DNA of 64,000 nt from Verrucomicrobiaceae bacterium (lineage in GTDB: Bacteria; Verrucomicrobiota; Verrucomicrobiia; Chthoniobacterales; Terrimicrobiaceae). The stretch covers positions 1 through 64,000 of the forward strand of contig QYQL01000004.1 of assembly GCA_007280915.1 (NCBI GenBank). Reading direction: 5' to 3'. Made by a program: the position numbers and the translations under genes. The notes beneath the pieces are model-generated. The model saw only the letters and a list, made by a program, of their open reading frames with translations. It searched no databases and was not told the origin of the DNA. Of this stretch, positions 14,094-46,118 are shown one piece after another (positions within the stretch are counted from its first letter, which is position 1; every line of letters begins with the position of its first letter).

Positions 14094-16817
14094 ATGAAAA
14101 ACATTCTCCTCCGATCTCTGTCGTGCGCGTGCCCGCGGAGCGCCCCCGCTCTGATTTTATCCGGTTGGCTTTTCAGCATTCCGGCGGTTGTCCTTCCGGC
14201 TTGCGCCGCCCCATCCAGTGAAGTGATTGAAGGCAATGTCAGGGTTCAGGCACTTTCCCCGACACTGGTTCGCATCGAGCAAAAGGGCCCCCAAGGGTTC
14301 GAGGATCGCAAGACTTTGACTGTGGTGAACCGTGAGTGGCCGGGTGTGCCGTTGAAGGTCGAAAAACAGGAAGGCCATGTTCTGTTGTCGTCGTCGTTCT
14401 ATCAGGTGGAGATTCCGGTGGACTCGAAGAATATTTTTGGAGTCAAAGTCCGCTCCGGTTCGGGTGAGGTGCTTCATACCATTGCGAAGTCCGATATGAA
14501 GTGCGGCTTTTTGCCGGCCCCCTCTGCGATGCCCTTGGTCTGGGTCATGCCGGATTCCCCGCGTCTTGTCCCCCCGGCGTGTGGGGCCTCGCCGGCTCCC
14601 GCCACCTGCACCGAAAACCAGGAGACCTCCGGCTGGGACATGGCGAACCAGGCGCAGGACGTCTATCTTTTCCTGCCGAAGCCGGGCGATTACGCCGCAT
14701 TCCGGCAGGAGTTTTTGAGTCTGACCGGTCCGGTCCCGATGCCGCCGCTCTTTGCGTTCGGCCTTTGGTTCAGCCGCTACTGGCCGTATTCGGAGGACGA
14801 GTCGCTGGCGATTATGGACGAGTTTCGGACGCGCGGGTTTCCGCTGGATCTGATGGTCAGCGATACCGACTGGCGCGTGGGAGCCTCCAGCGGTTACGGG
14901 GTCAATCAAAAGCTGTTCCCCGACATGGCGCGCTATATCGCCAGGGCGCATGAGAAAAACGTGCGGACGATGTATAACGACCATCCGGAGGCTCAATCTC
15001 CCGGCGCACTGGATCCCAAGGAAATGGCCTATCGCCAGGAGGGGCTCGACAGCCTGCTGAACATCGGGGCCGATGTCTGGTGGTATGATAAAAACTGGGG
15101 CAAGCACCTGAAGGCCCCGGATGGCCTGACCATCGAGTTCTGGGGGATGGTCGTCTATCACGACATGACGCTTCGGAACCGCCCGGACCGGAGGCCGCTG
15201 ATCATGTCGAATGTGGACGGGATCTGGGGCGGGATGCGCCTGGTCCCGAGCAATCCGGCGGCCCACAGGTATCCGCTCTGGTGGACTGGCGACACGCTGG
15301 CTTTCTGGGAGGAGCTGAGGTCGGGAATCGAAAACGGCGTCGGCAGCGGGATTGACCGGATGATGCCGTATGTCAATGAGGATTTGGGCGGACATATGCT
15401 TGTGGACACGCCCGAGTTGTTCACCCGCTGGTTCCAGTTCGGCGTTTTTTCGCCGCTGCCCCGCCCGCACAGCTATCCGACCGTGCATTTTCCATGGGCA
15501 TTCGGCGAAGAGGCGGAGAAGATCTGCCGCGAATACGCGCAACTGCGATACCGCCTGCTGCCTACGATCTACACGGCAGTCCGCCGCGCTTACGAAGACG
15601 GGATTCCGCTCCTGCAGCGCTGCGATCTCCAGTGGCCGCAATTTCCCGAAGCCGCCGACGGGCTCCAGTATCTTTTCGGCGAGGACCTCCTGGTCGCTCC
15701 CCAATGTTACAGCGGGCTGGATCCGATTCCTCTGGCTTTGCTCCAGGCCCCGGAGGGAAAGCCGGGGCTGCGCGCCGAGTATTTTGACAACGAAAAATTC
15801 GAGGGAAAGCCGAAGGTGGTGCGCACGGACAAAAAGCTATTCTTCGACTGGAAAGTGCGTCCCGACGGCTTGGCCATGAAGAATACGTCCGTGCGTTGGA
15901 CCGGCTCGCTCGGCCCGGTCGCGGAAACCGCCGAGTATGAATTCGGACTGACTTCGAAGGACGGCGCGAAATTCTGGATCGGGGATACCGAACTCATCAG
16001 CAAGACGGAAGTTTTGCAGAACCGGCAGAAGATCGAGATGACAAAAGCCCGCATCAAGCTGGAAGCGGGAAAGACCTATCCGATCAAGGTGGAGTTCTTC
16101 GCGAAGGACGGAGGCGAGTGCAATTTGTTCTTTGGTGCCGCCAACAAGACCGACGACAAGGAACACCAGACCCGCGCGCTCTGGATCCCGCCGGGACGCT
16201 GGCAGGATGCATGGACCGGCGAAGCGTTGGAGGGGCCGAAGCCGATCACCGTCACATCCGACCTCGAGCACACCCCGATGTATGTGCGCGAGGGTGGAAT
16301 GATTGTCACCACGCCCCTGCGCATGCATTCCGGCATTCCGGTTTGGGACAACCTCGTGGTCGATGCCTTTGTGCGTTCCGATCGAGGAACCGACCAGCGG
16401 GATATTTATGAGGATGACGGACTCTCGAATGGCTATCTCCAGGATAAATTCAGCCGGACCCGCATGTCCATGAATACAGAAAGTGGCAAAACCACCCTTC
16501 GGGTTGAGCCAACATCGGGCGGGATTCTCCCGGCGGGCTTCCGCCGCACCTGGACGTTCCGCTTCCATGTGCCCGCCGGATCTCCGGTGCCGGCGGTCAG
16601 CGTGAATGGCAAAGGCCTGAAACCCGGTCAAACGGAGGAGAGGAGCCTCCGTGTCACGATGCTCAAACCCGGAGAAACACGCGCCTTCCCGTTCCTGGGG
16701 CAGGGAGCGGTTCCGGGAAATAAAGCCGGCCCCATTGCAGAAATCTCCATTTCGGATTATCCGGCTGATCAACCTCTCACGATTACGCTCTCAACCGGAG
16801 AGACCCACCAAAAGTAA
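14094..16817 (+). CDS. Secreted GH31 alpha-glycosidase with inserted PA14 domain
   Basis: 907 residues from the ATG at 14094, with a long hydrophobic N-terminal export signal. The catalytic domain (about 200-555) has the nucleophile Asp332 in WWYDKNWG, the acid/base Asp400 in TGDTLAFWEEL and the NEDLGGHM motif. After GEDLLVAP a PA14-type module (about 558-683, LRAEYFDNEKFEGKP ... KDGAKFWIGD) interrupts the protein before the usual C-terminal beta domains resume at LWIPPGRWQDAWTGE. PA14 modules in GH31 xylosidases bind or shape oligosaccharide substrates. It is likely an alpha-xylosidase or alpha-glucosidase acting on side chains. It is the last gene of the operon. Confidence 0.88.
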   Translation: MKNILLRSLSCACPRSAPALILSGWLFSIPAVVLPACAAPSSEVIEGNVRVQALSPTLVRIEQKGPQGFEDRKTLTVVNREWPGVPLKVEKQEGHVLLSSSFYQVEIPVDSKNIFGVKVRSGSGEVLHTIAKSDMKCGFLPAPSAMPLVWVMPDSPRLVPPACGASPAPATCTENQETSGWDMANQAQDVYLFLPKPGDYAAFRQEFLSLTGPVPMPPLFAFGLWFSRYWPYSEDESLAIMDEFRTRGFPLDLMVSDTDWRVGASSGYGVNQKLFPDMARYIARAHEKNVRTMYNDHPEAQSPGALDPKEMAYRQEGLDSLLNIGADVWWYDKNWGKHLKAPDGLTIEFWGMVVYHDMTLRNRPDRRPLIMSNVDGIWGGMRLVPSNPAAHRYPLWWTGDTLAFWEELRSGIENGVGSGIDRMMPYVNEDLGGHMLVDTPELFTRWFQFGVFSPLPRPHSYPTVHFPWAFGEEAEKICREYAQLRYRLLPTIYTAVRRAYEDGIPLLQRCDLQWPQFPEAADGLQYLFGEDLLVAPQCYSGLDPIPLALLQAPEGKPGLRAEYFDNEKFEGKPKVVRTDKKLFFDWKVRPDGLAMKNTSVRWTGSLGPVAETAEYEFGLTSKDGAKFWIGDTELISKTEVLQNRQKIEMTKARIKLEAGKTYPIKVEFFAKDGGECNLFFGAANKTDDKEHQTRALWIPPGRWQDAWTGEALEGPKPITVTSDLEHTPMYVREGGMIVTTPLRMHSGIPVWDNLVVDAFVRSDRGTDQRDIYEDDGLSNGYLQDKFSRTRMSMNTESGKTTLRVEPTSGGILPAGFRRTWTFRFHVPAGSPVPAVSVNGKGLKPGQTEERSLRVTMLKPGETRAFPFLGQGAVPGNKAGPIAEISISDYPADQPLTITLSTGETHQK

Positions 16818-16993
16818 GCGGAAGGCTCAACCCGAAAACCTCCTTTGCTTCGGGGCGACCTGGCACAATCTGCTGGCCGCAAAGGGCCTTTGTCAGCACT
16901 TACCGGATCACAGCGGATACGCCTCGCGCCTCCGCAGGCCCTATCGGCCAGCATTTTGCACCATCTCTTCCCCTCCAAAGGACGTTTTCGGGT

Positions 16994-17683
16994 TCAAGGA
17001 ACAGAATAATTCATAAACGCGCAAAGGCGGGCGATTCCGATTTCGTGTTCCGTATTGGCGTTTTCCAAATCGATTTTCAGCTGTCCATCGTCTGGCGCCG
17101 TGTAGGCGTAAACGAAGTATTTCCCGCTATCGCCCGTCACCGTCAGGACTTCCGGCTTGTCAGGAGTATCACTTGCCGTCGCCGTGATTTTTTTCCCCCC
17201 GGGGGTCGAGTCGGGTATCAGGATCTGCGGTCCGAATAATACCAGATTGTAATTTTTCCCCGGCTGCAACCCTGTCAGTTCCAGTGAAAGCCCTTTGTTT
17301 TTTCCTTTCGGAACGATTCTTCCCTGGAGAAGCGCTGCGCTGCTTCCCTCCATTTTTACGGAGTCCAGCAATTTTTCCGGCCGCCGGGTGACCTCCACCG
17401 AGGCGGCATGTTCCGGATACGTCCAGACCGACCAGTTGTCTCCGGCAATGCGTTTGGTGATCTCGAACGGCGGAGGCGGAGCGGGCTCGGTTTCAATTCC
17501 GAATACCACCGCATGGGTGACCGAGTCAGGAGCGGCTTTTGGAAGATACTGATCGCCGGTCCACTTGGCAGCGGACCAGGTTCCTGCTTCCAAGGCGGGC
17601 GCCGCGAGTGTCAGCGCAGACAGAATTGGTAGTGCAATACGGATTCCGCTGCGGAAAAACCGGTCCGGGGAGAGCGTTTTCAT
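16994..17683 (-). CDS. Secreted protein of unknown function
   Basis: 229 residues. The N-terminus is a signal peptide (basic start, then ALPILSALTLAAPALEA). The rest is beta-strand-rich, with LTGLQPGKNYNLVLFGP and GKYFVYAYTAPDDGQLKIDLE, reminiscent of a fibronectin-like or carbohydrate-binding module. No diagnostic residues are visible. It starts 43 bp downstream of the minus-strand sulfatase, so the two are probably cotranscribed. The 176 bp between its stop and the convergent GH31 gene holds no gene. Confidence 0.65.
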   Translation of the reverse strand: MKTLSPDRFFRSGIRIALPILSALTLAAPALEAGTWSAAKWTGDQYLPKAAPDSVTHAVVFGIETEPAPPPPFEITKRIAGDNWSVWTYPEHAASVEVTRRPEKLLDSVKMEGSSAALLQGRIVPKGKNKGLSLELTGLQPGKNYNLVLFGPQILIPDSTPGGKKITATASDTPDKPEVLTVTGDSGKYFVYAYTAPDDGQLKIDLENANTEHEIGIARLCAFMNYSVP

Positions 17684-17726
17684 TCCACGAAAACTGGCGG
17701 AATTCCTTCCCGTTTGTCGAGAGATT

Positions 17727-19256
17727 TCACTCCGCTCCCGGGGTTGCCTGCTTTTTCTCGTTCGCGGGCACGATGGCGTCGGAGTCCTTGTAGAGCGCGC
17801 GCAGGCGGGTCAGTTCGGCCTTGAGCTCCTCCACGGTTTTTGCGTAGGCGGGGTCGGCATACACGTTGTGAAGCTGGAGGGGGTCCTTCTGGTTGTCGAA
17901 AAGCTCCCACTCGTTCTTGTCGTAAAAAAAGGCGAGCGTGTAGCGGTCTGTGCGTACGCCGTAGTGTTTCGCGACGTGGTGGCTGTTTTCCCCATAGTAG
18001 TGGTAATAGACGCTCTTCCTCCAGTCATCCGGGGTTTTTCCGCGGAGGATCGGGACCAGAGAATGACCGTGGAGTCCTTCGGGCACTTTGCCGCCCGCCA
18101 TGTCCACAAATGTTTCGGCATAGTCGATGTTCTGGATGAACGGGGTGAAGCGGGTGTCCGGCTTGACCACTCCCGGCCAGCGGACGATGAATGGCATGTG
18201 GATGGATTCGTCGTAGATCCAGCGCTTGTCAAACCAGCCGTGCTCGCCGTTGAAGAAGCCCTGGTCGGATGAGTAAATGACGATCGTGTTGTCTTCGAGG
18301 CCGAGTTTTTTCAATTCCTCGACGATCCGTCCCACGCTGTCGTCCACCGATTTGACGCACCGCAGGTAGTCCTTCATGTATTGCTGGTATTTCCACTGCG
18401 TCAGCTCGCGGCCTTCGGGCTTGTTCTTTTCAAAGTCGGCGTTGCGCGCCGCGTAGTTCGGATTTTTTCCGTTCTTTCCACCGACCTTCACGTCGCCAGC
18501 CATGGTCATATCCTTTTCGATGCTCATCTTCTGTTCCCGGGCAGGCGAGGCTTGGTCCGCGTAGTCGTCAAAGAGGGTTTCCGGTTCGGGGACTTTCACG
18601 TCGTCAAGCCATGTGGCGTATTTCGGCGAGGGTTCCCATGGGCGATGCGGGGCCTTGTGGTGAATTGCCAGGAAGAACGGCTTTGAAGTGTCCCGGTTTC
18701 TCAGCCATTCGAGGGCCATGTCGGTGATGACGTCGGTGACATACCCCTGAGTTTGAATCTTCTCGCCCTTTGAGTTATTGAAGCTCGGGTTGAAATATAT
18801 GCCCTGCCCCGGGAGAATCATCCATTCATCGAATGTGGGTGTGGTTTTCTCCAGATGCCATTTTCCCAGCAGAAACGTCTGGTAGCCGGCTTCGCGCAGG
18901 CCCAGCGGGTAGCTCCACATTTCCTTCGGGATCGCCGGCTGGCCGATGATCGACATCACTCCGTTCGCATGGCCGTGTAGCCCGGTGAAGATGGCCGCCC
19001 GGCTCGGCGAACAAATCGAGTTGCCGCAAAAGCTGTTCACAAAAAGCCCTCCTTGCTCCGCCAGCTTGTCAATGTTCGGAGTGATGTTGTTCTGCTTGCA
19101 GAATTCCGACAGCCGCGCCCCGTAGGCGCCGATTGTTTGGAGGGAATGGTCGTCGGAGAGGATGAAGACGATGTTCGGCTTTTTCGGTGTGGTTTCCGCG
19201 CGGGCGGAAAGCGATGCTGCTGTGACGATTATCGAAAGAACGAGGGGGAATTTCAT
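17727..19256 (-). CDS. Secreted sulfatase (arylsulfatase/heparan-sulfatase-like)
   Basis: 509 residues from the ATG at 19256, chosen because it directly precedes the signal peptide MKFPLVLSIIVTAASLSARA; an upstream in-frame ATG at 19310 would add a non-signal extension. NIVFILSDDHSLQTIG gives metal ligands and C82-S-P-S-R is a canonical formylglycine site. LLGKWHLEK, IHHKAPHRPWEP and YSSDQGFFNGEHGWFDKRW follow. The C-terminal WELFDNQKDPLQLHN matches sulfatases of this group. It is the third sulfatase of the region, on the opposite strand to the other two, and thus likely a separately controlled part of the same degradation programme. Confidence 0.93.
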   Translation of the reverse strand: MKFPLVLSIIVTAASLSARAETTPKKPNIVFILSDDHSLQTIGAYGARLSEFCKQNNITPNIDKLAEQGGLFVNSFCGNSICSPSRAAIFTGLHGHANGVMSIIGQPAIPKEMWSYPLGLREAGYQTFLLGKWHLEKTTPTFDEWMILPGQGIYFNPSFNNSKGEKIQTQGYVTDVITDMALEWLRNRDTSKPFFLAIHHKAPHRPWEPSPKYATWLDDVKVPEPETLFDDYADQASPAREQKMSIEKDMTMAGDVKVGGKNGKNPNYAARNADFEKNKPEGRELTQWKYQQYMKDYLRCVKSVDDSVGRIVEELKKLGLEDNTIVIYSSDQGFFNGEHGWFDKRWIYDESIHMPFIVRWPGVVKPDTRFTPFIQNIDYAETFVDMAGGKVPEGLHGHSLVPILRGKTPDDWRKSVYYHYYGENSHHVAKHYGVRTDRYTLAFFYDKNEWELFDNQKDPLQLHNVYADPAYAKTVEELKAELTRLRALYKDSDAIVPANEKKQATPGAE

Positions 19257-19343
19257 GAATAGATCAATGGGAGGACATAAAATGTTTTTTCGGGCCGCGT
19301 TTGTAAACAAATATGATCCCGCCGGAATCCCGCCCGATGCTGC

Positions 19344-19736
19344 CTACAATCCCGTGGGTGCGACCGGGGCGTGTTTGCGCAGGAAATCCTGGCGGCTCGC
19401 GGCCAGATCTTTAAGTTTGATTCTCTGCTCGGGGGTCAGCTCGGAAGTCAGTTCCTTTTGGGCGTCGAGCAATTCCGCATCAACTTTTTGGATCGTCTCG
19501 GCATAGATCCCCATGATCCGGGCCATCGAGCGGTCGACAAGGAGGCGCGTGGTCTTCTGCTGGGCGTCATCAAGGCCGAGTTTTTGTGTGAGTTCCTTCT
19601 CAATCCGGGAAGCCAGTGCTTTGGGATGCAGGGCCTTCACGAGATACTGTTTCGTCAATGTGGCCCCGAGCAGGCCGCCGGTCAGCGCGCCCACGAGGAA
19701 GATCGCTGCAAGATAGAGGTAGGTTTTCCGGTTCAT
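19344..19736 (-). CDS. Membrane-anchored periplasmic protein, CpxP/Spy-like (LTxxQ)
   Basis: 130 residues. One N-terminal transmembrane helix (about 5-27, glycine-rich) is followed by a charged helical domain with DDAQQKTTRLL and the ELTPEQRIKLKDL stretch, typical of the CpxP/Spy/heavy-metal-resistance family. These proteins are helical stress sensors or chaperones in the periplasm. It overlaps the upstream 87-residue gene by four bases (ATGA) and is the third gene of an ECF sigma operon. It may help modulate the sigma factor. The assignment rests on the LTPEQ motif, length and context. Confidence 0.65.
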   Translation of the reverse strand: MNRKTYLYLAAIFLVGALTGGLLGATLTKQYLVKALHPKALASRIEKELTQKLGLDDAQQKTTRLLVDRSMARIMGIYAETIQKVDAELLDAQKELTSELTPEQRIKLKDLAASRQDFLRKHAPVAPTGL

Positions 19737-19996
19737 GGTTGGATGGCTTCGTAGAGGGCTGCATTCGCGAGAAGGATCGTTGGGCTTGCCGGCTCGAAAA
19801 GCGGACCGAAAGACACCGCCGAGGCCAGGATGAGCGCTGCGCAGGCAAATGCCAGAGCCGCGCGGTAGTTCGGCGCGGGCTCGGCGGCATTACGGCTGCG
19901 CCATGCCGAGATCACGCGGGCCTCGAGGCGTTGGGACGGAGCGGGAGCAGGGGACCCCGCCAGCGAAAAGATGCGGTCAAGGTGAGGATGTTTCAT
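19733..19996 (-). CDS. Small single-pass membrane protein, putative anti-sigma factor
   Basis: 87 residues. A soluble N-terminal part of about 45 residues (LDRIFSLAGSPAPAPSQRLEARVISAWR) precedes one hydrophobic helix (about 45-66) and a short outer tail. It starts within the stop codon of the ECF sigma gene and ends within the start codon of the CpxP-like gene, both ATGA overlaps. Position and topology suggest a compact anti-sigma factor holding the sigma factor at the membrane. No zinc-binding HxxxCxxC motif is present, so it is not a ZAS-type anti-sigma factor. The function is inferred. Confidence 0.6.
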   Translation of the reverse strand: MKHPHLDRIFSLAGSPAPAPSQRLEARVISAWRSRNAAEPAPNYRAALAFACAALILASAVSFGPLFEPASPTILLANAALYEAIQP

Positions 19997-20571
19997 GCCT
20001 TTTGGTTTTCAGTGAGTCTCTGGAGCGCAAGGTTCAATTTCCGGCGGGCGCGGAACGCGCGGATTTTTACGACAGCCTGAGGGAATCCCGTCAGCGCGCT
20101 GACTTCGGCGACAGGGTGTTCCTCGATGTGGAGGAGGGAAATGACGAGTCGGTCGGCGGGTGAAAGCGCGGTCAGCAGTTTGCCCACGAGTTCGCGCGCA
20201 TCGGCAGCGGCTTCGGTCCTGTCCCGGGTCACATCCGCCACACGGGCCAGGAGATCGCGTTCCTCCTCCCCCAGATCCGCCTCCCGGAGCTCGTGGCGGC
20301 TCCTTTGCCTCTTGATCTCGTTCAGGCAGGTGTTGACCGCAATACGGGAGACCCAGTGTGAGACCGGCATCCGGCCGGAATACTGGTCCAGCTTGGAAAA
20401 GACTTTTGCGAAAATCATCTGGCAGAGATCCTCCTCAGTGTGCGGCGCGGGAAGGTGGTTCCGGACGATCTTGAAAACCGCCGGATACAGGAGGTGGAAA
20501 AACTGCCTTGCCGCATCCTCGTCTCCGGAGCGAACCCGTTGCAGCAATTCCCCGCCGATCTCATCACCCAT
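19993..20571 (-). CDS. ECF-type RNA polymerase sigma factor
   Basis: 192 residues. Region 2 is evident in FFHLLYPAVFKIVRNHLPAPHTEEDLCQMIFAKVF followed by WVSRIAVNTCLNEIKRQR. Region 4 is the C-terminal helix-turn-helix in LSPADRLVISLLHIEEHPVAEVSALTGFPQAVVKIRAFRARRKL. There is no region 1.1 or 3, as expected for ECF proteins. It redirects RNA polymerase to stress or envelope promoters. It is followed by two coupled membrane protein genes that probably control it. An unusual palindrome just upstream carries a likely autoregulated promoter. Confidence 0.9.
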   Translation of the reverse strand: MGDEIGGELLQRVRSGDEDAARQFFHLLYPAVFKIVRNHLPAPHTEEDLCQMIFAKVFSKLDQYSGRMPVSHWVSRIAVNTCLNEIKRQRSRHELREADLGEEERDLLARVADVTRDRTEAAADARELVGKLLTALSPADRLVISLLHIEEHPVAEVSALTGFPQAVVKIRAFRARRKLNLALQRLTENQKA

Positions 20572-20616
20572 GGCAATTCGTCCACATTAGAAGAAAGACC
20601 GCGGCAGCCTGCCTGC

Positions 20617-20640
20617 GGTTACAAAAACTTTTTTGTAACC
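20617..20640. promoter_or_regulatory. Palindromic bidirectional ECF promoter core
   Basis: An 11-base perfect inverted repeat with a CT centre holds two outward-facing TGTAAC(C) elements, the classic ECF -35 type. On the plus strand TGTAAC (20634-20639) is followed after 17 bases by TGTCT (20657-20661). On the minus strand TGTAAC (20623-20618) is followed after 17 bases by GGTCT (20600-20596). The two halves have the same spacing and similar -10 boxes and drive the sigma operon and the divergent membrane protein. The start sites lie about 15-20 bases (minus) and under 10 bases (plus) from the ATGs. That the sigma factor itself recognises them is inference. Confidence 0.6.
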
Positions 20641-20674
20641 AACCGCCGGCCCGTGCTGTCTGTCTGTAATAGCC

Positions 20675-21148
20675 ATGAAACTCTTTTCGCTCCGGTCTCT
20701 TTTGATTCTTGCAGTGGCCCTCGCCATTGTCGCCAACATTTTGTGGAGAATGCCCTCCGGCTCCTCCGCAAAGCCGGCATCCGCTGACTCGATGAGCACC
20801 GCCGAGATCTGGGCGCCCGAAAACATTCTGCCATCGGTCTCCAACCTTCGCGCTATGGGCAAACAGTGGGAGGCGCGCCTTGCCACCCTTCCACCGGAGG
20901 AGCGCGCAAAATCCGAGGCGCGACTCAAGGAAGAGACCCGTTTTTTCGTCGAGGCCCAGTTCCTTCCCCGCGAGGAGCGGAAGGCAAAGGTCCGGGAGCG
21001 AATCGAAACTCTGATGAACGATCCCGGTATCCAGTCCGACTGGGCGGCCGAGCGGATGAAGATGCTTGCAGGCATGACCCCCGAACAGAGGCATGAAGTT
21101 TTGAAAAAATATGTGCAATCCAAAGACAAACAAAAGCAGTCTCAGTAA
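20675..21148 (+). CDS. Single-pass membrane protein with long charged helical domain
   Basis: 157 residues. One N-terminal transmembrane helix (about 7-24, [19 protein letters not shown]) precedes a strongly charged, helical exported region ([38 protein letters not shown] and [14 protein letters not shown]). The TPEQ motif echoes the CpxP/Spy-like protein across the divergent promoter, so it may be a related periplasmic helper. It is transcribed from the plus side of the palindromic ECF promoter with a very short leader. Its last 38 bases overlap the pseudopilin gene in another frame. Confidence 0.6.
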
Positions 21149-21749
21149 TGCGTTCACCCTTCTGGAACTCCTGTTGGTTATTGCGCTGATCGCCCTGCTG
21201 GCTGGGCTTGTATTTCCCGCCGTCGGGACTATCCGCAAGCGGGCGGAGAGGACGGTCTGCGCAAACAACCTGCGTCAGATCGGTTTGGCTGTCATGCAGA
21301 AGGTGCAGGACAACGGGAATATCTACCCGTATGTCGAGGGAGACAACTCGGCCAAGGTGTATACGGGGACGACACATGAGAGCGAAGCGAAGAGTCTGGC
21401 GGCGACATTGAAAGAATACGGATTCACCGACACGGGGGACAAAACCGACAAATCGCTCCGGTGCCCATCGGACACAATGGCTAAAAACTATCTCCCGACA
21501 AACAAGGGGAGCAGCTACGAGTGGTATTCCTTTATCGATGGAGAAAGTGCCGCCAGCGCAAAAATCTACATCAGCGAGGGAACGCTTGTTCTCCCGCTGT
21601 CGCGTTTTCCCATCGCCGGCGATTATGATTCCGTGCATCCGCGAAGCAGCAAGAACATCCTCTTTGCCGATGGGCATGTGGATTCCTACACGGGGCTGGG
21701 CATAAAGAATGATATCAAGACGGAGGTAGAAAAGGCCACCCAGCCCTGA
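21111..21749 (+). CDS. Type II secretion-like pseudopilin with H-X-DG motif
   Basis: 212 residues starting at the ATG at 21111, which lies inside the preceding gene. The N-terminus has the prepilin cleavage/methylation signature [22 protein letters not shown] after a short leader. The mature part has [12 protein letters not shown], common in the DUF1559-like family of planctomycetes and verrucomicrobia. The C-terminus has [18 protein letters not shown], the prepilin processing-associated H-X9-DG motif, here with ten intervening residues. Such proteins are extremely abundant in PVC bacteria and their function is poorly known. Sharing a promoter with an ECF regulon member is unusual. Confidence 0.85.
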
Positions 21750-21946
21750 TTTTGTTCGCGGCAGGCAGGTTCGAGAGAAAAACAATGTCAGGGGCGAATG
21801 GATTGGTTTGGAGAAAGCATGGATGTGCTGAAGGCCAAGTAGCCGGTTAGGGCTGAATCCTCTCGCGGCGTTTTCCTTTGCGCTTTGCAAGCGCTGGCTC
21901 CGCGCTGTAAAATCTGCAGCCATGCTCGAAGCCATCCCCCTCCATT

Positions 21947-23032
21947 ATGTTTTCTGACGTCGCCTTGCCGCTGCCTGACGACTTCGGGAAAACCCCCGAC
22001 GGAATTCCCGTGAAAATCTTCACCCTGACCAATTCCCATGGCGCGAAGCTGCGGGTGATGAACTTCGGTGCCATCGTGCTGAGCATTGAGGTTCCGGACC
22101 GCAACGGGAAGTCAGGAGACATCGCGCTCGGATACAAGACGCTGGCGGAGTATATCAAGGACACCCCCTATTTTGGCGCTGTTGTTGGACGGTATGGCAA
22201 CCGCATTGCGAACGGCAAGTTTACTTTGGATGGAACCACCTACACGCTGGCCACCAACAACGAACCGGGAGGAATTCCCTGTGCCCTGCACGGCGGGCTG
22301 AAAGGCTTCGACAAGGCGATCTGGGATGGCGTTGGCGTCGAGAAGCCTGGTGCCACGGGTGTCAGGTTCGACTATCGGAGCAAGGATGGAGAAGAGGGAT
22401 ATCCCGGCAACCTCGACGTCACCGTGACCTACTGGTTGACGAACGACAACGAGTGGCAGATCGATTACGCCGCCGCCACGGACAAGGCGACTCCGGTCAA
22501 TATCACCCAGCACAGCTACTTCAACCTCAAGGGCGAGGGCAATGGCGACATTCTCGGACACGAGCTCACGCTCAACTCATCCCGGTTCACGCCGGTCACG
22601 GCCGGACTCATCCCGACCGGCGAGCTGCGGCCCGTCGCCGGCACGCCGTTTGACTTCACGTCTCCGCATGCCATCGGGGAGCGGATCGATGCGAAGGACG
22701 ACCAGATCCAGTTCGGCGGCGGCTATGATCACAATTGGGTTCTCGATGGCAAACCGGGGGAGCTCTCCCCGGCCGCCACGGTTTATGAGCCGACCACCGG
22801 ACGGGTTATGGAGGTCCTCACGACCGAGCCGGGCATCCAGTTCTATGCCGGAAATTTTCTGGACGGCAGCCTGACCGGCAAGCAGGGGAAGCCGTATGCC
22901 CGCCGGAGCGGACTGGCGCTGGAGACGCAGCACTTTCCCGACTCACCGAACCACCCGGATTTTCCCAACACAATCCTCCGTCCGGGAGAGGAGTTCAAGA
23001 GCACCACCGTCTATCGCTTCAGCGTCCGGTAG
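21947..23032 (+). CDS. galM: Aldose 1-epimerase (mutarotase)
   Basis: 361 residues without a signal peptide, so cytoplasmic. It interconverts alpha and beta anomers of aldoses entering central metabolism. Key motifs are FGAIVLSIEVPDR, VVGRYGNRIANGKF, LHGGLKGFDKAIW with a catalytic His, NITQHSYFNLKG with the second His and GLALETQHFPDSPN with the catalytic Glu. Length is typical. It begins at an ATG after a 197-bp intergenic region that contains a short GCGCTT-TGC-AAGCGC hairpin at 21880-21894. Its neighbour on the other strand is apbE. It fits the sugar-catabolic theme of the window. Confidence 0.96.
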   Translation: MFSDVALPLPDDFGKTPDGIPVKIFTLTNSHGAKLRVMNFGAIVLSIEVPDRNGKSGDIALGYKTLAEYIKDTPYFGAVVGRYGNRIANGKFTLDGTTYTLATNNEPGGIPCALHGGLKGFDKAIWDGVGVEKPGATGVRFDYRSKDGEEGYPGNLDVTVTYWLTNDNEWQIDYAAATDKATPVNITQHSYFNLKGEGNGDILGHELTLNSSRFTPVTAGLIPTGELRPVAGTPFDFTSPHAIGERIDAKDDQIQFGGGYDHNWVLDGKPGELSPAATVYEPTTGRVMEVLTTEPGIQFYAGNFLDGSLTGKQGKPYARRSGLALETQHFPDSPNHPDFPNTILRPGEEFKSTTVYRFSVR

Positions 23033-23041
23033 AGCGGGACT

Positions 23042-23881
23042 TCAACCGCGTGTCGGATGGATCATATTTCCATCCCTGTCTTCGACGATGATGTCGGCGA
23101 GGTCAGGGATCGCTGAAAGAAACTTTTCCCGTTCTTCGCTGGTAGCAAGGAAGCAGGCTGTCGAAAGGGCATCTGAAAGAGCGGCGGAATTCGCGACGAC
23201 CCACACCCTGCGGGGGAAGGAAGTCTCTTCCGGTTTAAGGAATGGATGGATGATGTGGTTCCCCTGGATGCCGGTTCCGGATGCACTCAGGGAATTGTTC
23301 TGCAGTTCGATGGTGCGGGATTCCGAGTCTCCGATCAGTTCCATCGGCCATGTCGCATCCCCGAGCGCAAGGTGAGTGCTGGCTCCTGCGGAGAGAAGAA
23401 AATCCCCCACTTCGAGTTCGCGGAGTGTGTCCGCCATGCGGTCGAGCGCATAACCCTTGCCGATTGCGCCAAGATCGATCTGGCGGCCCGGCTCGATGCA
23501 CGTGATCTCCGGCCGATCCGGATTCAGGCTCAGGCGGCCGTGAAGTTCTGCTGTGCGTTCGGGAGCCGTCAGCGAACCGATCGTGACATCGAAAAGCCCT
23601 GCGGTCATCGCATGCGCTTCCAGCGCGATCCGAAGGCAGGACCACGTTTCCTCGTGCAGCAACAAGGATTCTCCCGCGCGCAGGTTGTTGACGGCCGAAA
23701 TATCGCTGTCCTCCCGATACCGGCTGAGAAGAGACTCGAGATTTTCCAACTGCCGGAAGCACTCGCCGGCGAGAGCGGCCGATTTCCGTTCATCCGCCAT
23801 TTTCAGGCGGATGGCGAAGAGTGTGTTCATTGCAGGGTGCGTGTGCATCTGCCACGGCCCGGCCGGCAGGGAAATACTCAT
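23042..23881 (-). CDS. apbE: FAD:protein FMN transferase (ApbE)
   Basis: 279 residues. ApbE enzymes attach FMN covalently to Thr/Ser of partner flavoproteins such as NqrB/RnfG. Motifs include MNTLFAIRL, SRYREDSDISAVNN, the AMTAGLFDVTIGSL stretch and IDLGAIGKGYALDRM, followed by FLLSAGASTHLALG. No lipoprotein or clear signal peptide is seen, so the site of action is uncertain; ApbE usually acts in the periplasm. The gene overlaps the Agl23-like membrane protein by four bases (ATGA). No flavinylated partner is encoded nearby. Confidence 0.9.
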   Translation of the reverse strand: MSISLPAGPWQMHTHPAMNTLFAIRLKMADERKSAALAGECFRQLENLESLLSRYREDSDISAVNNLRAGESLLLHEETWSCLRIALEAHAMTAGLFDVTIGSLTAPERTAELHGRLSLNPDRPEITCIEPGRQIDLGAIGKGYALDRMADTLRELEVGDFLLSAGASTHLALGDATWPMELIGDSESRTIELQNNSLSASGTGIQGNHIIHPFLKPEETSFPRRVWVVANSAALSDALSTACFLATSEEREKFLSAIPDLADIIVEDRDGNMIHPTRG

Positions 23882-25368
23882 CGGGAATTGCCTGTTGATT
23901 TTTCCCAGATGTCTTTTCTGACAAAAAGGAGGACCGGTGTATCCGAGCGCAGGCCCTCGGGGATGGCCACATGGGAGTCAGCGAGTTGTTCGCTTAATGC
24001 GGGTGCAAATTCCGGCATGGCCACCACCAGTGCGTGTGAGGCGAGACCGTCCGGCGGGGTCGGCCAGTAGCCAGCTTTTGGCAGGCCGCGGAAATACCAG
24101 GGAAGCGGCCAATACCTCGGGCCAATCACGCTCACCGTCTCGCCAATCCAGCCGCCATCCTTCAGCCACCCGATCGATCGCGCCGTCCATGTTTCCAGCC
24201 CCGGTGCGGTCGGGACATAGGCAAAAGGGTTTCTGGCATCGGAGGGATATTTGAATGCAACCCTCCAGGCTTGCAGCCCTTGGAACGCGAGCAGAGCGGC
24301 GAGTGCAATGCCAGCCGCCACACGGACCAGCGGACGAAGTTGCAAAAGGGCGGCAGCACCGATGCCGGCCGCGATGAGAATATGCAGCCACGGCACCAGC
24401 ATGAGCCACGGAGTTTTGTAGGGCAGGAGAGAATACACGCCCGCCTGGATCACCCCTGCGAGGAAACAAAATCTGGCGGCGGCGGGAACAGGAGTGGCGT
24501 CCGGTTTTTGGAAAAGGGAAATGATTGCCAGCAGAAAAATGCCGCCCTGCCACCACCAGAGCCGTCCGTGGTGGGAGGGGAAAAGAAACAGGTTTGCGTA
24601 ATAGAGCAGGGACTTTTCATGTCCTTCACCGGTTTGGTAACTCCAATACGTCGAGACAAAGTCCCAGACCCCGCCGGGATGGGTGCCGAACCCCGAATAG
24701 AAAAACACGACTATGGCAAGGAATGCGGCTCCCACAGTCAGGAGCTGGGGGAGAAGCAGTCGGATTGAGGCGATCGACGGACGGTAAATCCATACTGCCG
24801 CCACCGCCCATGCCACGGGAGTGAGAACAAACGTCTCTTTCGTGGTGGCAGCGAGTCCGAGACAGATTCCGGCCGTCCACAGAGGCATGCGGAATCGCAC
24901 GTGATATCCCAACAGCAGCAGCGCTCCAGCCATGCACAGCAGCAACAGATCCTCATGGATGAACAGACGGCTGTAGTAGACTAGAAATGGAGACACTGCA
25001 GCGAAGGCTGCGGCCCCGAGCGCGGCGATTCGTCCGATGAGTGGAGCAGAGGCTAGAATGAGCAGTACGACGGTGATGCCGGACAGCGCCGGAACAATCC
25101 TCAGGGTGAACTTGGTGAGGCTCAACCAGGATTCCTCCCCAGCGAACTTTGCGGAGACGACCGCTGCATCGATGGGAAGTGGGCCGTGAAAATGGTGTGG
25201 ATTGAACATCATGGTTCCGCTTTTTGCATCGCCCGGGAATTGGGCGGCCACGATGCGGGCCTGCGTGGCCTCGTCAAAGTGGAGGGGCGCAGAGGAAAGA
25301 TCGGCGGTTCGCATCCATGCGGCGACCGCAACAATGGCCGCTCCTGCAAGAAGGAAGTTCACCCGCAT
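23878..25368 (-). CDS. Agl23/TIGR03663-like GT-C membrane protein (glycosyltransferase 39 superfamily)
   Basis: 496 residues with about ten transmembrane helices and a soluble C-terminal part. The N-terminal LHFDEATQARIVAAQF contains an acidic motif like the DE pair of GT-C (dolichyl-phosphate mannose) glycosyltransferases. The motif FYSGFGTHPGGVWDF followed by HEKSLLYYANLF, and LPYKTPWLMLV, recur in the gene at the right end of the window (FYSGNFLDF, HEKTSFQIGPLNYY, IPYKTPWCI), so the two are paralogues. Members are annotated as flippase activity-associated Agl23, but the biochemistry is not settled. It is translationally coupled to apbE. Confidence 0.8.
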   Translation of the reverse strand: MRVNFLLAGAAIVAVAAWMRTADLSSAPLHFDEATQARIVAAQFPGDAKSGTMMFNPHHFHGPLPIDAAVVSAKFAGEESWLSLTKFTLRIVPALSGITVVLLILASAPLIGRIAALGAAAFAAVSPFLVYYSRLFIHEDLLLLCMAGALLLLGYHVRFRMPLWTAGICLGLAATTKETFVLTPVAWAVAAVWIYRPSIASIRLLLPQLLTVGAAFLAIVVFFYSGFGTHPGGVWDFVSTYWSYQTGEGHEKSLLYYANLFLFPSHHGRLWWWQGGIFLLAIISLFQKPDATPVPAAARFCFLAGVIQAGVYSLLPYKTPWLMLVPWLHILIAAGIGAAALLQLRPLVRVAAGIALAALLAFQGLQAWRVAFKYPSDARNPFAYVPTAPGLETWTARSIGWLKDGGWIGETVSVIGPRYWPLPWYFRGLPKAGYWPTPPDGLASHALVVAMPEFAPALSEQLADSHVAIPEGLRSDTPVLLFVRKDIWEKSTGNSR

Positions 25369-25428
25369 TGCGGAAACATAGCCGGATTGACGCCAGAGAA
25401 CAATGGCGACTCAAAACCCGTTAGACTC

Positions 25429-26568
25429 TCACCGGCTTCGGGTGATGCAAGACACGGGCAGTCGCCGCACATCTCCCGGCGTCACTGGTATTCCGGAATC
25501 GGCGCTGGCGACGGCGGCGAAGCAGATTTCCAGACTGCGTAAATTGTTCCGGGCCGAGTTGATCGGCTCGCGGTTCTCCTCGATCGCGCAGAGGAGTTCC
25601 CCCATCGTGCCGTGCATTCCGTCTGGAACCCATTGCCCCTGAAGGTTCGGGCTGGCAATCCCTGCAGTTGTGTGAAGGGTGACGGTTTGATTTTGCAAAT
25701 CCGGCCCGATGCTTCGCAGGGTTCCTCTGCTGCCGATCACACTGGTGCGGTCCTCCTGTCCGATGACGGTATCCCCGTTGAACGCGATGGTCGCCTGCGC
25801 TCCATCGAAATCAACGGTGACGTGGGCGAGGAGCGGTGGCGTTGCTTTCTGGCTGCCCGAGCGCTCGATCGACGCGAAGACTTTTCTTGCCTGGTGACCG
25901 GTGAAAAAAATCTGGATCAGATCGAACCAGTGGACCGCAAAGTCATACAGGACGAGATGGTGAAGATCGTTGAACGGAGTCGTTGCCGTCCAGTTGTGAT
26001 CCCAATTCACCTCGAAACTAACGCTGCTCAGTTCTCCGATGACTCCTGCTTGAATCGCGTGGCGGATATAGGAAAAGTGAGGTGCCCAGCGGGCGTTCTG
26101 ATTGATTGCCAGCTTCACGCCCATCTCGTCGGCAAGGTCGGCGAACCGGAGCCCGAGGTCCAGATCGACGACAAACGGTTTCTGGCTCAGCACGTGTTTG
26201 CGCGCGTGCAGGGCGGCGGGAATGATCTCCTCGCGTTCGACCGGATGAGCTGCGATGTCCACGACTTCGATGTCGGTGCGTGACAGTAATTCGCGGTAGT
26301 CAGTATGGATCAGCGCTTCAGGATAAAACTCTTTCCGGCGCTCTTCCGCCTTTTCGCGGACTGGATCGCAAAGTGCGACAACCCGGTATCCGGCGGCTTT
26401 GTAAGCTTGGAGATGGGTCCGGGTAATTCCTCCGCACGCAATCAGGCCGATGTTCGGACGGTAGTTTTTCGGGTCACGCGGACGGTAGGGCATTTCCGTA
26501 GCGGGAATTGCCCCCCCCGTTTGGGCCGCCGTGAAGCCGTAGGATTTTTCGGGCGCTTTGTCGTTCAT
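25429..26568 (-). CDS. Gfo/Idh/MocA-family oxidoreductase
   Basis: 379 residues from the ATG at 26568. The frame is open further upstream but runs into the neighbouring gene. The Rossmann nucleotide site is NIGLIACGGITRTHLQAY, followed by VVALCDP. SQKPFVVDLDL carries the conserved catalytic lysine of the family's EKP motif, and INQNARWAPHFSYIR follows. HWFDLIQIFF holds the usual His. No signal peptide, so it is cytoplasmic. The family oxidises or reduces sugar derivatives with NAD(P). It is last of five close genes (8 bp after the previous), so likely part of a sugar-catabolic operon. Confidence 0.9.
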   Translation of the reverse strand: MNDKAPEKSYGFTAAQTGGAIPATEMPYRPRDPKNYRPNIGLIACGGITRTHLQAYKAAGYRVVALCDPVREKAEERRKEFYPEALIHTDYRELLSRTDIEVVDIAAHPVEREEIIPAALHARKHVLSQKPFVVDLDLGLRFADLADEMGVKLAINQNARWAPHFSYIRHAIQAGVIGELSSVSFEVNWDHNWTATTPFNDLHHLVLYDFAVHWFDLIQIFFTGHQARKVFASIERSGSQKATPPLLAHVTVDFDGAQATIAFNGDTVIGQEDRTSVIGSRGTLRSIGPDLQNQTVTLHTTAGIASPNLQGQWVPDGMHGTMGELLCAIEENREPINSARNNLRSLEICFAAVASADSGIPVTPGDVRRLPVSCITRSR

Positions 26569-44786: not shown

Positions 44787-46118
44787 GTGGCACGAGACTT
44801 ATACCAAAAATGCCGGGATTACCGCGACAGCGCCGATGCGCGCGCCCAAGGTTTTTATCCCTATTTCCGCTGTATCGAAGAACCTCACGGAAACTACGTG
44901 GTCTGCGAGGGGGAGCCGAAAATCATGATCGGCTCGAACAACTATCTGGGACTGGCTCAAGATCCCCGCGTTATCGAGGCGGCATGTGACGCGACCCGGC
45001 TTTATGGGGCGGGTTGCACGGGGTCGCGCCTGCTGAACGGGACGATCAAGCTGCATGTCGAACTGGAGGAGGCTCTCGCCGCGTTCCTCCAGCGCGAATC
45101 GGTCGTTCTTTTCTCCACCGGATTTTTTGCGAATCAGGGGGCGCTGGCGTCGCTGACCGAGGAAGGTGACGCGATCCTCTGCGACCGCGAGAACCACGCG
45201 AGCATCATCGACGGGTGCCAGTTCGCCGAGGCGAAGCTGATCCCGTATCGCCACAATTCCGCCCCCTCGCTCCGGAACCGGCTCAAGCGCCTTCCGGAGG
45301 ATGCCGGGCGGCTGGTGGTGATGGACGGGGTCTTCAGCATGTCAGGGGACATTGCCGACCTGCCTGCGATTGTCCCGGTGGCGAAGGAGCACGGCGCGTT
45401 TCTCTACGTGGATGAGGCGCATTCGCTGGGTGTCCTCGGTCCGAAAGGCCGCGGGACGGTCCATCATTTCGGCCTTAACGACGAGGTGGACATCGTGATG
45501 GGCACGTTCTCGAAATCGCTCGGTTCGATGGGCGGCTTCATCGCGGGGGATGCGCAGATGATCGAGTTTCTCAAGCACCGCGCGCGGTGCTTGATCTTCA
45601 CGGCCGCTCTTGCACCGGCTGTGGCCGGAGCGGTTCTGAAGGCTCTTGAACTGATGCAGGAGGAACCCGAGCGGATGGAGCAGCTCTGGAAAAACACGCG
45701 CAAGATGCACGAGGGCTTCAAGCGCATCGGCTTCAAGATCGGGACGACGCAGACCCCGATCGTGCCGATCCTGATCGGGAGCGAGGCGAAGGCATTCATC
45801 TTCACGCAGCGGCTTTTCGAGGAGGGGATCTTTGCCACGCCCGCGATCTACCCGGCGGTTCGTTACGGCGAGGCGATCGTCCGCACGAGCTTCATGGCCA
45901 CCCACACCGACTCCGATCTCGATCGCGTGCTCGAGATTTTTGAGAAACTTGCGCGCGAACTAGGAACCTTCGATGACCCCGCCTACGTCAACCCCACGCG
46001 CAGAAAAAACGTGTTTGATTTCCGCCTGCCGGAGTCGCCGGGAGAAGGCGAGGTTCGAGCGGACGGCGGAGATTCTCCACGGCACGGATCCGGCGTACGT
46101 CCCGCCGTTTCCCGGTAG
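44787..46118 (+). CDS. spt: Serine palmitoyltransferase-like alpha-oxoamine synthase
   Basis: 443 residues from a GTG at 44787, preceded by an AAGGA ribosome-binding site at 44771-44775. It is a PLP enzyme of the KBL/AONS/SPT family. The N-terminal GFYPYFRCIEEPHGNYVV, GSNNYLGLAQDP, GAGCTGSRLLNGT and VMDGVFSMSGDIADLP motifs resemble Bacteroides and Caulobacter serine palmitoyltransferases more than Kbl or BioF. The PLP lysine is Lys243 in GTFSKSLGSMGG. It would condense L-serine with palmitoyl-CoA/ACP in the first step of sphingolipid synthesis. The last 48 codons overlap the next gene in another frame. Confidence 0.85.
   Translation: MARDLYQKCRDYRDSADARAQGFYPYFRCIEEPHGNYVVCEGEPKIMIGSNNYLGLAQDPRVIEAACDATRLYGAGCTGSRLLNGTIKLHVELEEALAAFLQRESVVLFSTGFFANQGALASLTEEGDAILCDRENHASIIDGCQFAEAKLIPYRHNSAPSLRNRLKRLPEDAGRLVVMDGVFSMSGDIADLPAIVPVAKEHGAFLYVDEAHSLGVLGPKGRGTVHHFGLNDEVDIVMGTFSKSLGSMGGFIAGDAQMIEFLKHRARCLIFTAALAPAVAGAVLKALELMQEEPERMEQLWKNTRKMHEGFKRIGFKIGTTQTPIVPILIGSEAKAFIFTQRLFEEGIFATPAIYPAVRYGEAIVRTSFMATHTDSDLDRVLEIFEKLARELGTFDDPAYVNPTRRKNVFDFRLPESPGEGEVRADGGDSPRHGSGVRPAVSR

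What the first reader, a model, noticed from the sequence alone, without database searches (positions are those of the whole stretch)
20572..20674. Symmetric ECF promoter: a palindrome with two outward TGTAAC -35 boxes driving divergent genes
Seen: an 11-base perfect inverted repeat at 20617-20640 whose arms are TGTAACC facing outward, each followed after exactly 17 bases by (T/G)GTCT. One side leads to the ECF sigma gene, the other to a membrane protein and a pseudopilin. Inference: the sigma factor autoregulates and co-activates the divergent pair from a shared core, with mutual exclusion possible because both -35 boxes touch.
Basis: partly seen in the sequence, partly recalled or inferred. 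Interest (0 to 1): 0.6.

Follow-up and report, generated by a model that had tools for sequence, protein, structure and literature searches.

The report
Back-to-back promoters of a self-controlling sigma
A stress-type sigma factor gene and the gene beside it face away from each other, each with a copy of the same promoter; this pair of promoters is widely conserved in related soil bacteria, while the striking palindrome is mostly a by-product of the two copies lying unusually close together here.

Summary
The pattern TGTAAC-N16-18-GTCT occurs only twice in the 3.56-Mb genome, both times here. Comparison strongly supports the promoter reading. Of 55 usable relatives of the sigma gene (57 found), 53 have [C/T]GTAAC-N17-NGTC on the sigma side and 48 have both promoters; about 0.5 matches are expected by chance. 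The operon is sigma, small putative anti-sigma, membrane-anchored LTXXQ-like sensor. In relatives the divergent gene encodes a secreted LTXXQ/Spy-like protein; here that place is taken by an unrelated membrane protein plus pseudopilin. The palindrome is not the conserved unit: the gap between the -35 boxes is 10 nt here, 8 nt in one relative, 20-150 nt in most, about 455 nt in two. Both boxes carry an A-tract, so abutting copies make a palindrome. Mutual exclusion is sterically plausible here but not conserved. Divergent promoters for one ECF sigma are a known kind (ecfG/phyR). Extra lead: a conserved (G/A)TGTGG element in the sigma leader opens a mini-ORF ending at the sigma start. No expression data exist.

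The parts
20618..20623 (-). -35 box TGTAAC of the sigma-operon promoter
   Evidence: conserved in 53 of 55 usable relatives
20596..20600 (-). -10 box GGTCT of the sigma-operon promoter, 17 nt from the -35 box
20634..20639 (+). -35 box TGTAAC of the divergent promoter
   Evidence: conserved in 48 of 55 usable relatives
20657..20661 (+). -10 box TGTCT of the divergent promoter, 17 nt from the -35 box
20617..20640 (.). perfect inverted repeat: two -35 boxes sharing one A/T tract (UP-like by inference)
   Evidence: A-rich upstream columns in relatives
19993..20571 (-). ECF sigma factor, 192 aa
   Evidence: Pfam Sigma70_r2 and Sigma70_r4_2 above cut-off
19733..19996 (-). 87-aa putative anti-sigma with one apparent membrane helix; overlaps the sigma stop by 4 nt
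   Evidence: family alignment A3; weak NCBIfam anti-sigma match, E 0.023
19344..19736 (-). 130-aa membrane-anchored LTXXQ-like protein, putative sensor
   Evidence: Pfam LTXXQ in 27 of 31 aligned members but not in this one
20675..21148 (+). 157-aa membrane protein in the divergent slot; C-terminal half resembles proteins next to pseudopilins elsewhere
21111..21749 (+). pseudopilin-like protein (N-methylation motif, DUF1559-like)
20564..20587 (-). possible mini-ORF ATG TGG ... TGA in the sigma leader, stop overlapping the sigma start
   Evidence: element conserved in 75 of 85 loci, function untested

Best explanation
The region holds two separate, outward-facing promoters of one class (TGTAACC-N16-(G/T)GTCW) read by the ECF sigma factor encoded here. 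One drives the sigma / putative anti-sigma / anchored LTXXQ-like sensor operon (autoregulation); the other drives the divergent gene. In relatives the divergent gene is a secreted Spy/CpxP-like protein, so the ancestral circuit is probably an envelope or metal stress loop: the sensor and anti-sigma hold the sigma, stress frees it, and it makes more of its own operon and of a periplasmic helper. In this genome the divergent slot holds a membrane protein and a pseudopilin, so the output appears to have been changed while the promoter was kept. The palindrome arises because each -35 box has an A-rich tract upstream and the two boxes lie only 10 nt apart, so that tract is shared. Shown: sequences, spacing, conservation, gene order. 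Inferred: recognition by this sigma, autoregulation, the signal, and control of the pseudopilin pair.
For: Both promoters present in 48 of 55 usable relatives, sigma-side in 53, against about 0.5 expected; matches peak at one spacing only (18 nt to GTC: 53 sigma-side, 49 divergent; directly neighbouring spacings 0 or 1). The flanks are otherwise very divergent (median ungapped identity 0.29 over 120 nt). Own-genome matches lie mainly here: 2 of 2, 2 of 3 and 2 of 4 for three patterns. Sigma, ~100-aa and ~140-aa ORFs overlap by 4 nt in most relatives, as here. In L039 and L044 about 455 nt lie between the promoters, yet each gene keeps its own. A-rich tract upstream of both boxes. For another ECF sigma, SigAb, a 17-bp spacer and an A/T run upstream of -35 matter for activity (PMC12153292, section 6 read).
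Against: No transcript or binding data. The window's -10 boxes end in T (GTCT) where A is the commoner base in relatives (39 of 53 sigma-side, 48 of 49 divergent). The window protein P0004 has no Pfam match itself, and fold comparisons were inconclusive. One of the two closest sigma relatives, L015 (54% identical), has the sigma promoter only. The divergent promoter here could be a relic left from a lost Spy-like gene.
Confidence: 0.8

Rival explanations
1. The palindrome itself is the functional unit: either an operator for a dimeric regulator, or a compact switch in which one polymerase at a time can bind, so the sigma operon and the divergent genes exclude each other.
For: Gap of only 10 nt here and 8 nt in L121 with both promoters intact; L037, L041 and L056 carry an extra TGTAACC 9-10 nt from the divergent -35 box with no -10.
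Against: 48 of 55 usable relatives keep both promoters with gaps of 20-150 nt; four congeners of L121 have 99-111 nt between the same boxes; about 455 nt in L039 and L044. A -35 box plus its A-tract explains the arms.
Confidence: 0.12
2. Only the sigma-side promoter works in this genome; the divergent box is a relic of a Spy-like gene that was replaced, and the pseudopilin pair uses another promoter.
For: The divergent gene is not the conserved one; P0002-like genes occur in genomes without this sigma, e.g. G007 and G010, and G010's lies next to a pseudopilin.
Against: The divergent box keeps the exact -35, spacer and -10 and sits 13 nt before the start codon; no sigma-70-like site was found between the two divergent genes.
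Confidence: 0.2
3. The inverted repeat is a bidirectional transcription terminator or RNA hairpin.
For: The strand folds better than shuffles (z -3.1).
Against: It lies between divergent genes, where nothing needs terminating; the palindrome was not called as a terminator-like site; no Rfam match in 16000-26000; stem not conserved in most relatives.
Confidence: 0.03

Closest known systems
ecfG-nepR / phyR locus of Alphaproteobacteria
   Same: ECF sigma operon and a divergent gene, both under promoters of the same sigma (PMC4814048, passages read)
   Different: Different promoter (GAAC-N16,17-C/GGTT), partner-switch genes instead of membrane anti-sigma and LTXXQ proteins
CnrH/CnrY/CnrX metal-responsive ECF system of Cupriavidus
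   Same: Sigma and a membrane-bound anti-sigma complex CnrYX encoded together (PMC9045368, passages read); the sensor role and small size of CnrX are recalled. PDB sequence match of the sigma to CnrH is weak (E 0.00028)
   Different: No efflux gene among the eight window proteins scanned; metal sensing untested; anti-sigma family has no PDB sequence match
Bacillus subtilis SigX promoters and Acinetobacter SigAb
   Same: -35 TGTAAC and -10 CGWC for SigX; SigAb has a 17-bp spacer, an A/T UP-like run and small anti-sigmas in its operon (PMC12153292, section 6 and passages)
   Different: -10 here is (G/T)GTCT; SigAb uses GTCAAC and CGTT
Spy/CpxP/LTXXQ periplasmic proteins
   Same: Divergent proteins of relatives match Pfam LTXXQ (27 of 27 scanned) and Metal_resist (26 of 27) and Spy in the PDB (E 0.0007)
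   Different: The window's own divergent gene is not of this family

Membership tests
ECF (group 4 sigma-70) factor | Sigma regions 2 and 4 only | tested here: met
   Pfam Sigma70_r2 41.6 bits and Sigma70_r4_2 33 bits, both above cut-off; 191-192 aa
ECF (group 4 sigma-70) factor | Conserved own-type promoter upstream of its gene | tested here: met
   53 of 55 usable relatives; sequence level only
ECF (group 4 sigma-70) factor | Sigma actually transcribes from that promoter | not testable with these tools
   needs transcription assays
CnrYXH-like signalling | Small single-helix anti-sigma plus membrane-anchored sensor in the sigma operon | tested here: inconclusive
   gene order, sizes and hydrophobic stretches fit; no PDB sequence match for the anti-sigma, fold comparison of P0004 inconclusive
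CnrYXH-like signalling | Metal binding by the sensor | not tested
   no call addressed it
LTXXQ/Spy family | Third operon protein (P0004) matches the LTXXQ model | tested here: inconclusive
   27 of 31 aligned members match, P0004 does not; profile of divergent LTXXQ proteins hits P0004 (E 4e-10 in a set of 5 proteins)
LTXXQ/Spy family | Window divergent protein (P0002) belongs | tested here: not met
   profile score -0.7 bits; no LTXXQ match
ecfG/phyR locus | Divergent gene encodes the PhyR anti-anti-sigma | tested here: not met
   P0002 and P0005 show no such domain

The most novel reading that the evidence does not exclude
The sigma mRNA begins at or next to a conserved (G/A)UG-UGG that is translated without a leader as a mini-ORF of about 5-12 codons, and its termination at the sigma start codon gates sigma synthesis: a translational brake built into an autoregulated ECF circuit, kept across Chthoniobacterales.
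Probability: 0.3. Interest if true: 0.6.

Novelty: new variant of a known kind. Interest (0 to 1): 0.45.

Why it matters
It gives a precise promoter and a very small predicted regulon for an ECF group in little-studied Verrucomicrobiota, so both can be tested with one reporter construct. It also shows natural variants of the same pair of promoters with gaps from 8 to about 455 nt, a ready-made series for asking whether close back-to-back promoters interfere. In this genome the output gene has apparently been exchanged, an example of rewiring by changing the gene and keeping the promoter.

Tried and rejected
Palindrome as a conserved operator: rejected as the main reading because gaps vary widely. 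Terminator: rejected. P0002 as a diverged LTXXQ protein: not supported. Large regulon in the own genome: not supported by strict patterns; their totals do not exceed the reversed-pattern controls (2 v 12, 3 v 4, 4 v 15). Fold comparison of P0004 and of the L016 divergent protein with the PDB: Foldseek best E 2.9 for P0004, VIA-align best Z 7.0 and 5.2, none convincing for helical models; neither Spy nor CnrX was listed, which proves nothing. Horizontal transfer of the sigma gene: sigma matches in 1 of 26 genomes of the family at E 1e-20, but the tree leaves the window row unplaced on a long branch, so undecided. Mini-ORF as a selected peptide: the synonymous-change test does not favour its frame (47 synonymous, 106 not; other frames 60/88 and 31/116). 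Missing Shine-Dalgarno as evidence for coupling: uninformative, since the divergent starts lack it too (45 of 48 against 46 of 51). A first leader script cut the search too short and was replaced (by 54); a first operon script mis-chose the window's downstream ORFs, for which one search is used instead.

Literature: eight searches; none listed a paper whose title or shown abstract deals with this sigma group in Chthoniobacterales; the large ECF reclassification paper (recalled) was not held.

Full report
Observation. The repeat GGTTACAAAAA-CT-TTTTTGTAACC is at 20617-20640, and each arm leads outward into TGTAACC, a 17-nt spacer counted from TGTAAC, and (T/G)GTCT. It is not chance: simulated windows give 0.1 such palindromes and 0.05 such promoter patterns each, and the whole genome holds the pattern TGTAAC-N16-18-GTCT only at these two places, against 12 for the reversed control.

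Genes. Leftward, an ECF sigma factor, an 87-aa protein with one hydrophobic stretch and a 130-aa protein with an N-terminal hydrophobic stretch follow one another with 4-nt overlaps. Rightward, a 157-aa membrane protein (P0002) and a pseudopilin-like protein. That the hydrophobic stretches are membrane helices is read from the sequence, not predicted by a tool.

Conservation. The sigma protein was searched in genome contigs: 57 loci, nearly all titled Verrucomicrobia, Spartobacteria or Chthoniobacterales. Two could not be used (L038, N run; L046, contig end). With the pattern [C/T]GTAAC-N17-NGTC, the sigma side is present in 53 of 55, the divergent side in 48 of 55, both in 48 of 55; 13 matches in 734,620 strand-bases elsewhere in the same loci predict about 0.5. 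The misses: L066 and L071 (28-30% identical, other phyla) have neither; L015, L039, L044 and L052 lack the divergent box within 260 nt; L067 has it with a 16-nt spacer. Matches are at a single spacing. Ten further distinct loci (eight, L006 and L013): seven have both, two the sigma side only, one (L124) neither by this pattern.

Palindrome. The distance between the two TGTAAC boxes is 10 nt here, 8 nt in L121, 20-150 nt in the other loci with both boxes within 260 nt, and 455-456 nt in L044 and L039, where an extra stretch with inverted-repeat ends lies between. In L121's congeners L122, L126, L128 and L131, 99-111 nt of repeat-like sequence lies between the same boxes. Both promoters have an A-rich tract just upstream of -35, so two abutting copies produce a palindrome. 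The palindrome is therefore a close-packed form of a conserved pair of promoters, seen in two lineages. Whether two polymerases can bind at once with 10 nt between -35 boxes is doubtful on recalled footprint sizes; mutual exclusion is possible here but is not what is conserved.

The divergent gene. In relatives the first divergent ORF is about 120-150 aa with a signal-like N-terminus; 50 such ORFs were taken as one family, and of the 27 scanned all match Pfam LTXXQ and 26 Metal_resist; a profile of these 27 finds Spy in the PDB at E 0.0007. The third gene of the sigma operon is a membrane-anchored relative (27 of 31 match LTXXQ); P0004 itself has no Pfam match. P0002 does not fit this family. 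Its C-terminal half matches ORFs of 280-564 aa in 22 of 97 genomes, own genome included, and in 14 of 19 fetched homologue loci a prepilin-like ORF was found close by (L102 read). So a membrane-protein/pseudopilin pair that exists independently elsewhere sits here in the slot of the Spy-like gene. A secreted LTXXQ-like gene exists elsewhere in the genome (C43).

Distribution. Sigma matches at E 1e-20 occur in 1 of 26 genomes of the window's family and at E 1e-40 in 80 of 213 of the order.

Leader element. Between the sigma-side -10 and the sigma start, (G/A)TGTGG is present in 75 of 85 loci, 48 of them distinct, at 9 nt after GTCN in 44 of 48 (8 nt in the window). It opens a mini-ORF whose stop overlaps or lies near the sigma start; the distance to the sigma frame is always 1 mod 3 (13, 16, 19, 22, 25 and one 34), which suggests frame is kept, though these loci are related by descent. 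Of the ten without it, four lack the promoter pattern (L038, L066, L071, L124) and six have the promoter but another leader (L006, L015, L021, L043, L059, L132). Against: no codon-level signal, and lack of a Shine-Dalgarno is general. The element is absent on the divergent side (0 of 51). GUGUG and AUGUG start sites are known to allow initiation in two frames in E. coli (PMC9841429, passages).

Verdict. A conserved, probably autoregulatory ECF module with two outward promoters, of a known general kind (PMC4814048, passages), in a new lineage, with an exchanged output gene and an unusually compact geometry in this genome.

Noticed in passing
window 20564-20587 (-); relatives: Conserved (G/A)TGTGG in the sigma mRNA leader opening a mini-ORF that ends at the sigma start; frame distance always 1 mod 3.
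   Followed up: partly
L037, L041, L056, upstream of sigma: An extra TGTAACC without a -10 lies 9-10 nt from the divergent -35 box, making a palindrome like the window's, while the working sigma promoter is further downstream.
   Followed up: partly
L122, L126, L128, L131, L039, L044, between the promoters: Repeat-like stretches with inverted ends (TCATTCCGAGCG... type) lie between the two promoters and push them apart.
   Followed up: partly
window 45572-45593: A second perfect palindrome, CAAGCACCGCGCGCGGTGCTTG, with no spacer.
   Followed up: no
own genome C43:24173-24547 (L146): A secreted LTXXQ-like gene elsewhere in the genome, possibly the counterpart of the divergent gene of relatives; none of the promoter-pattern matches in the genome lies on that contig.
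   Followed up: no
G050 and G058: Some relatives carry two or three copies of this sigma gene.
   Followed up: no
window 20662-20675: Only 13 nt separate the divergent -10 box from the start codon, so that mRNA would be nearly leaderless.
   Followed up: no
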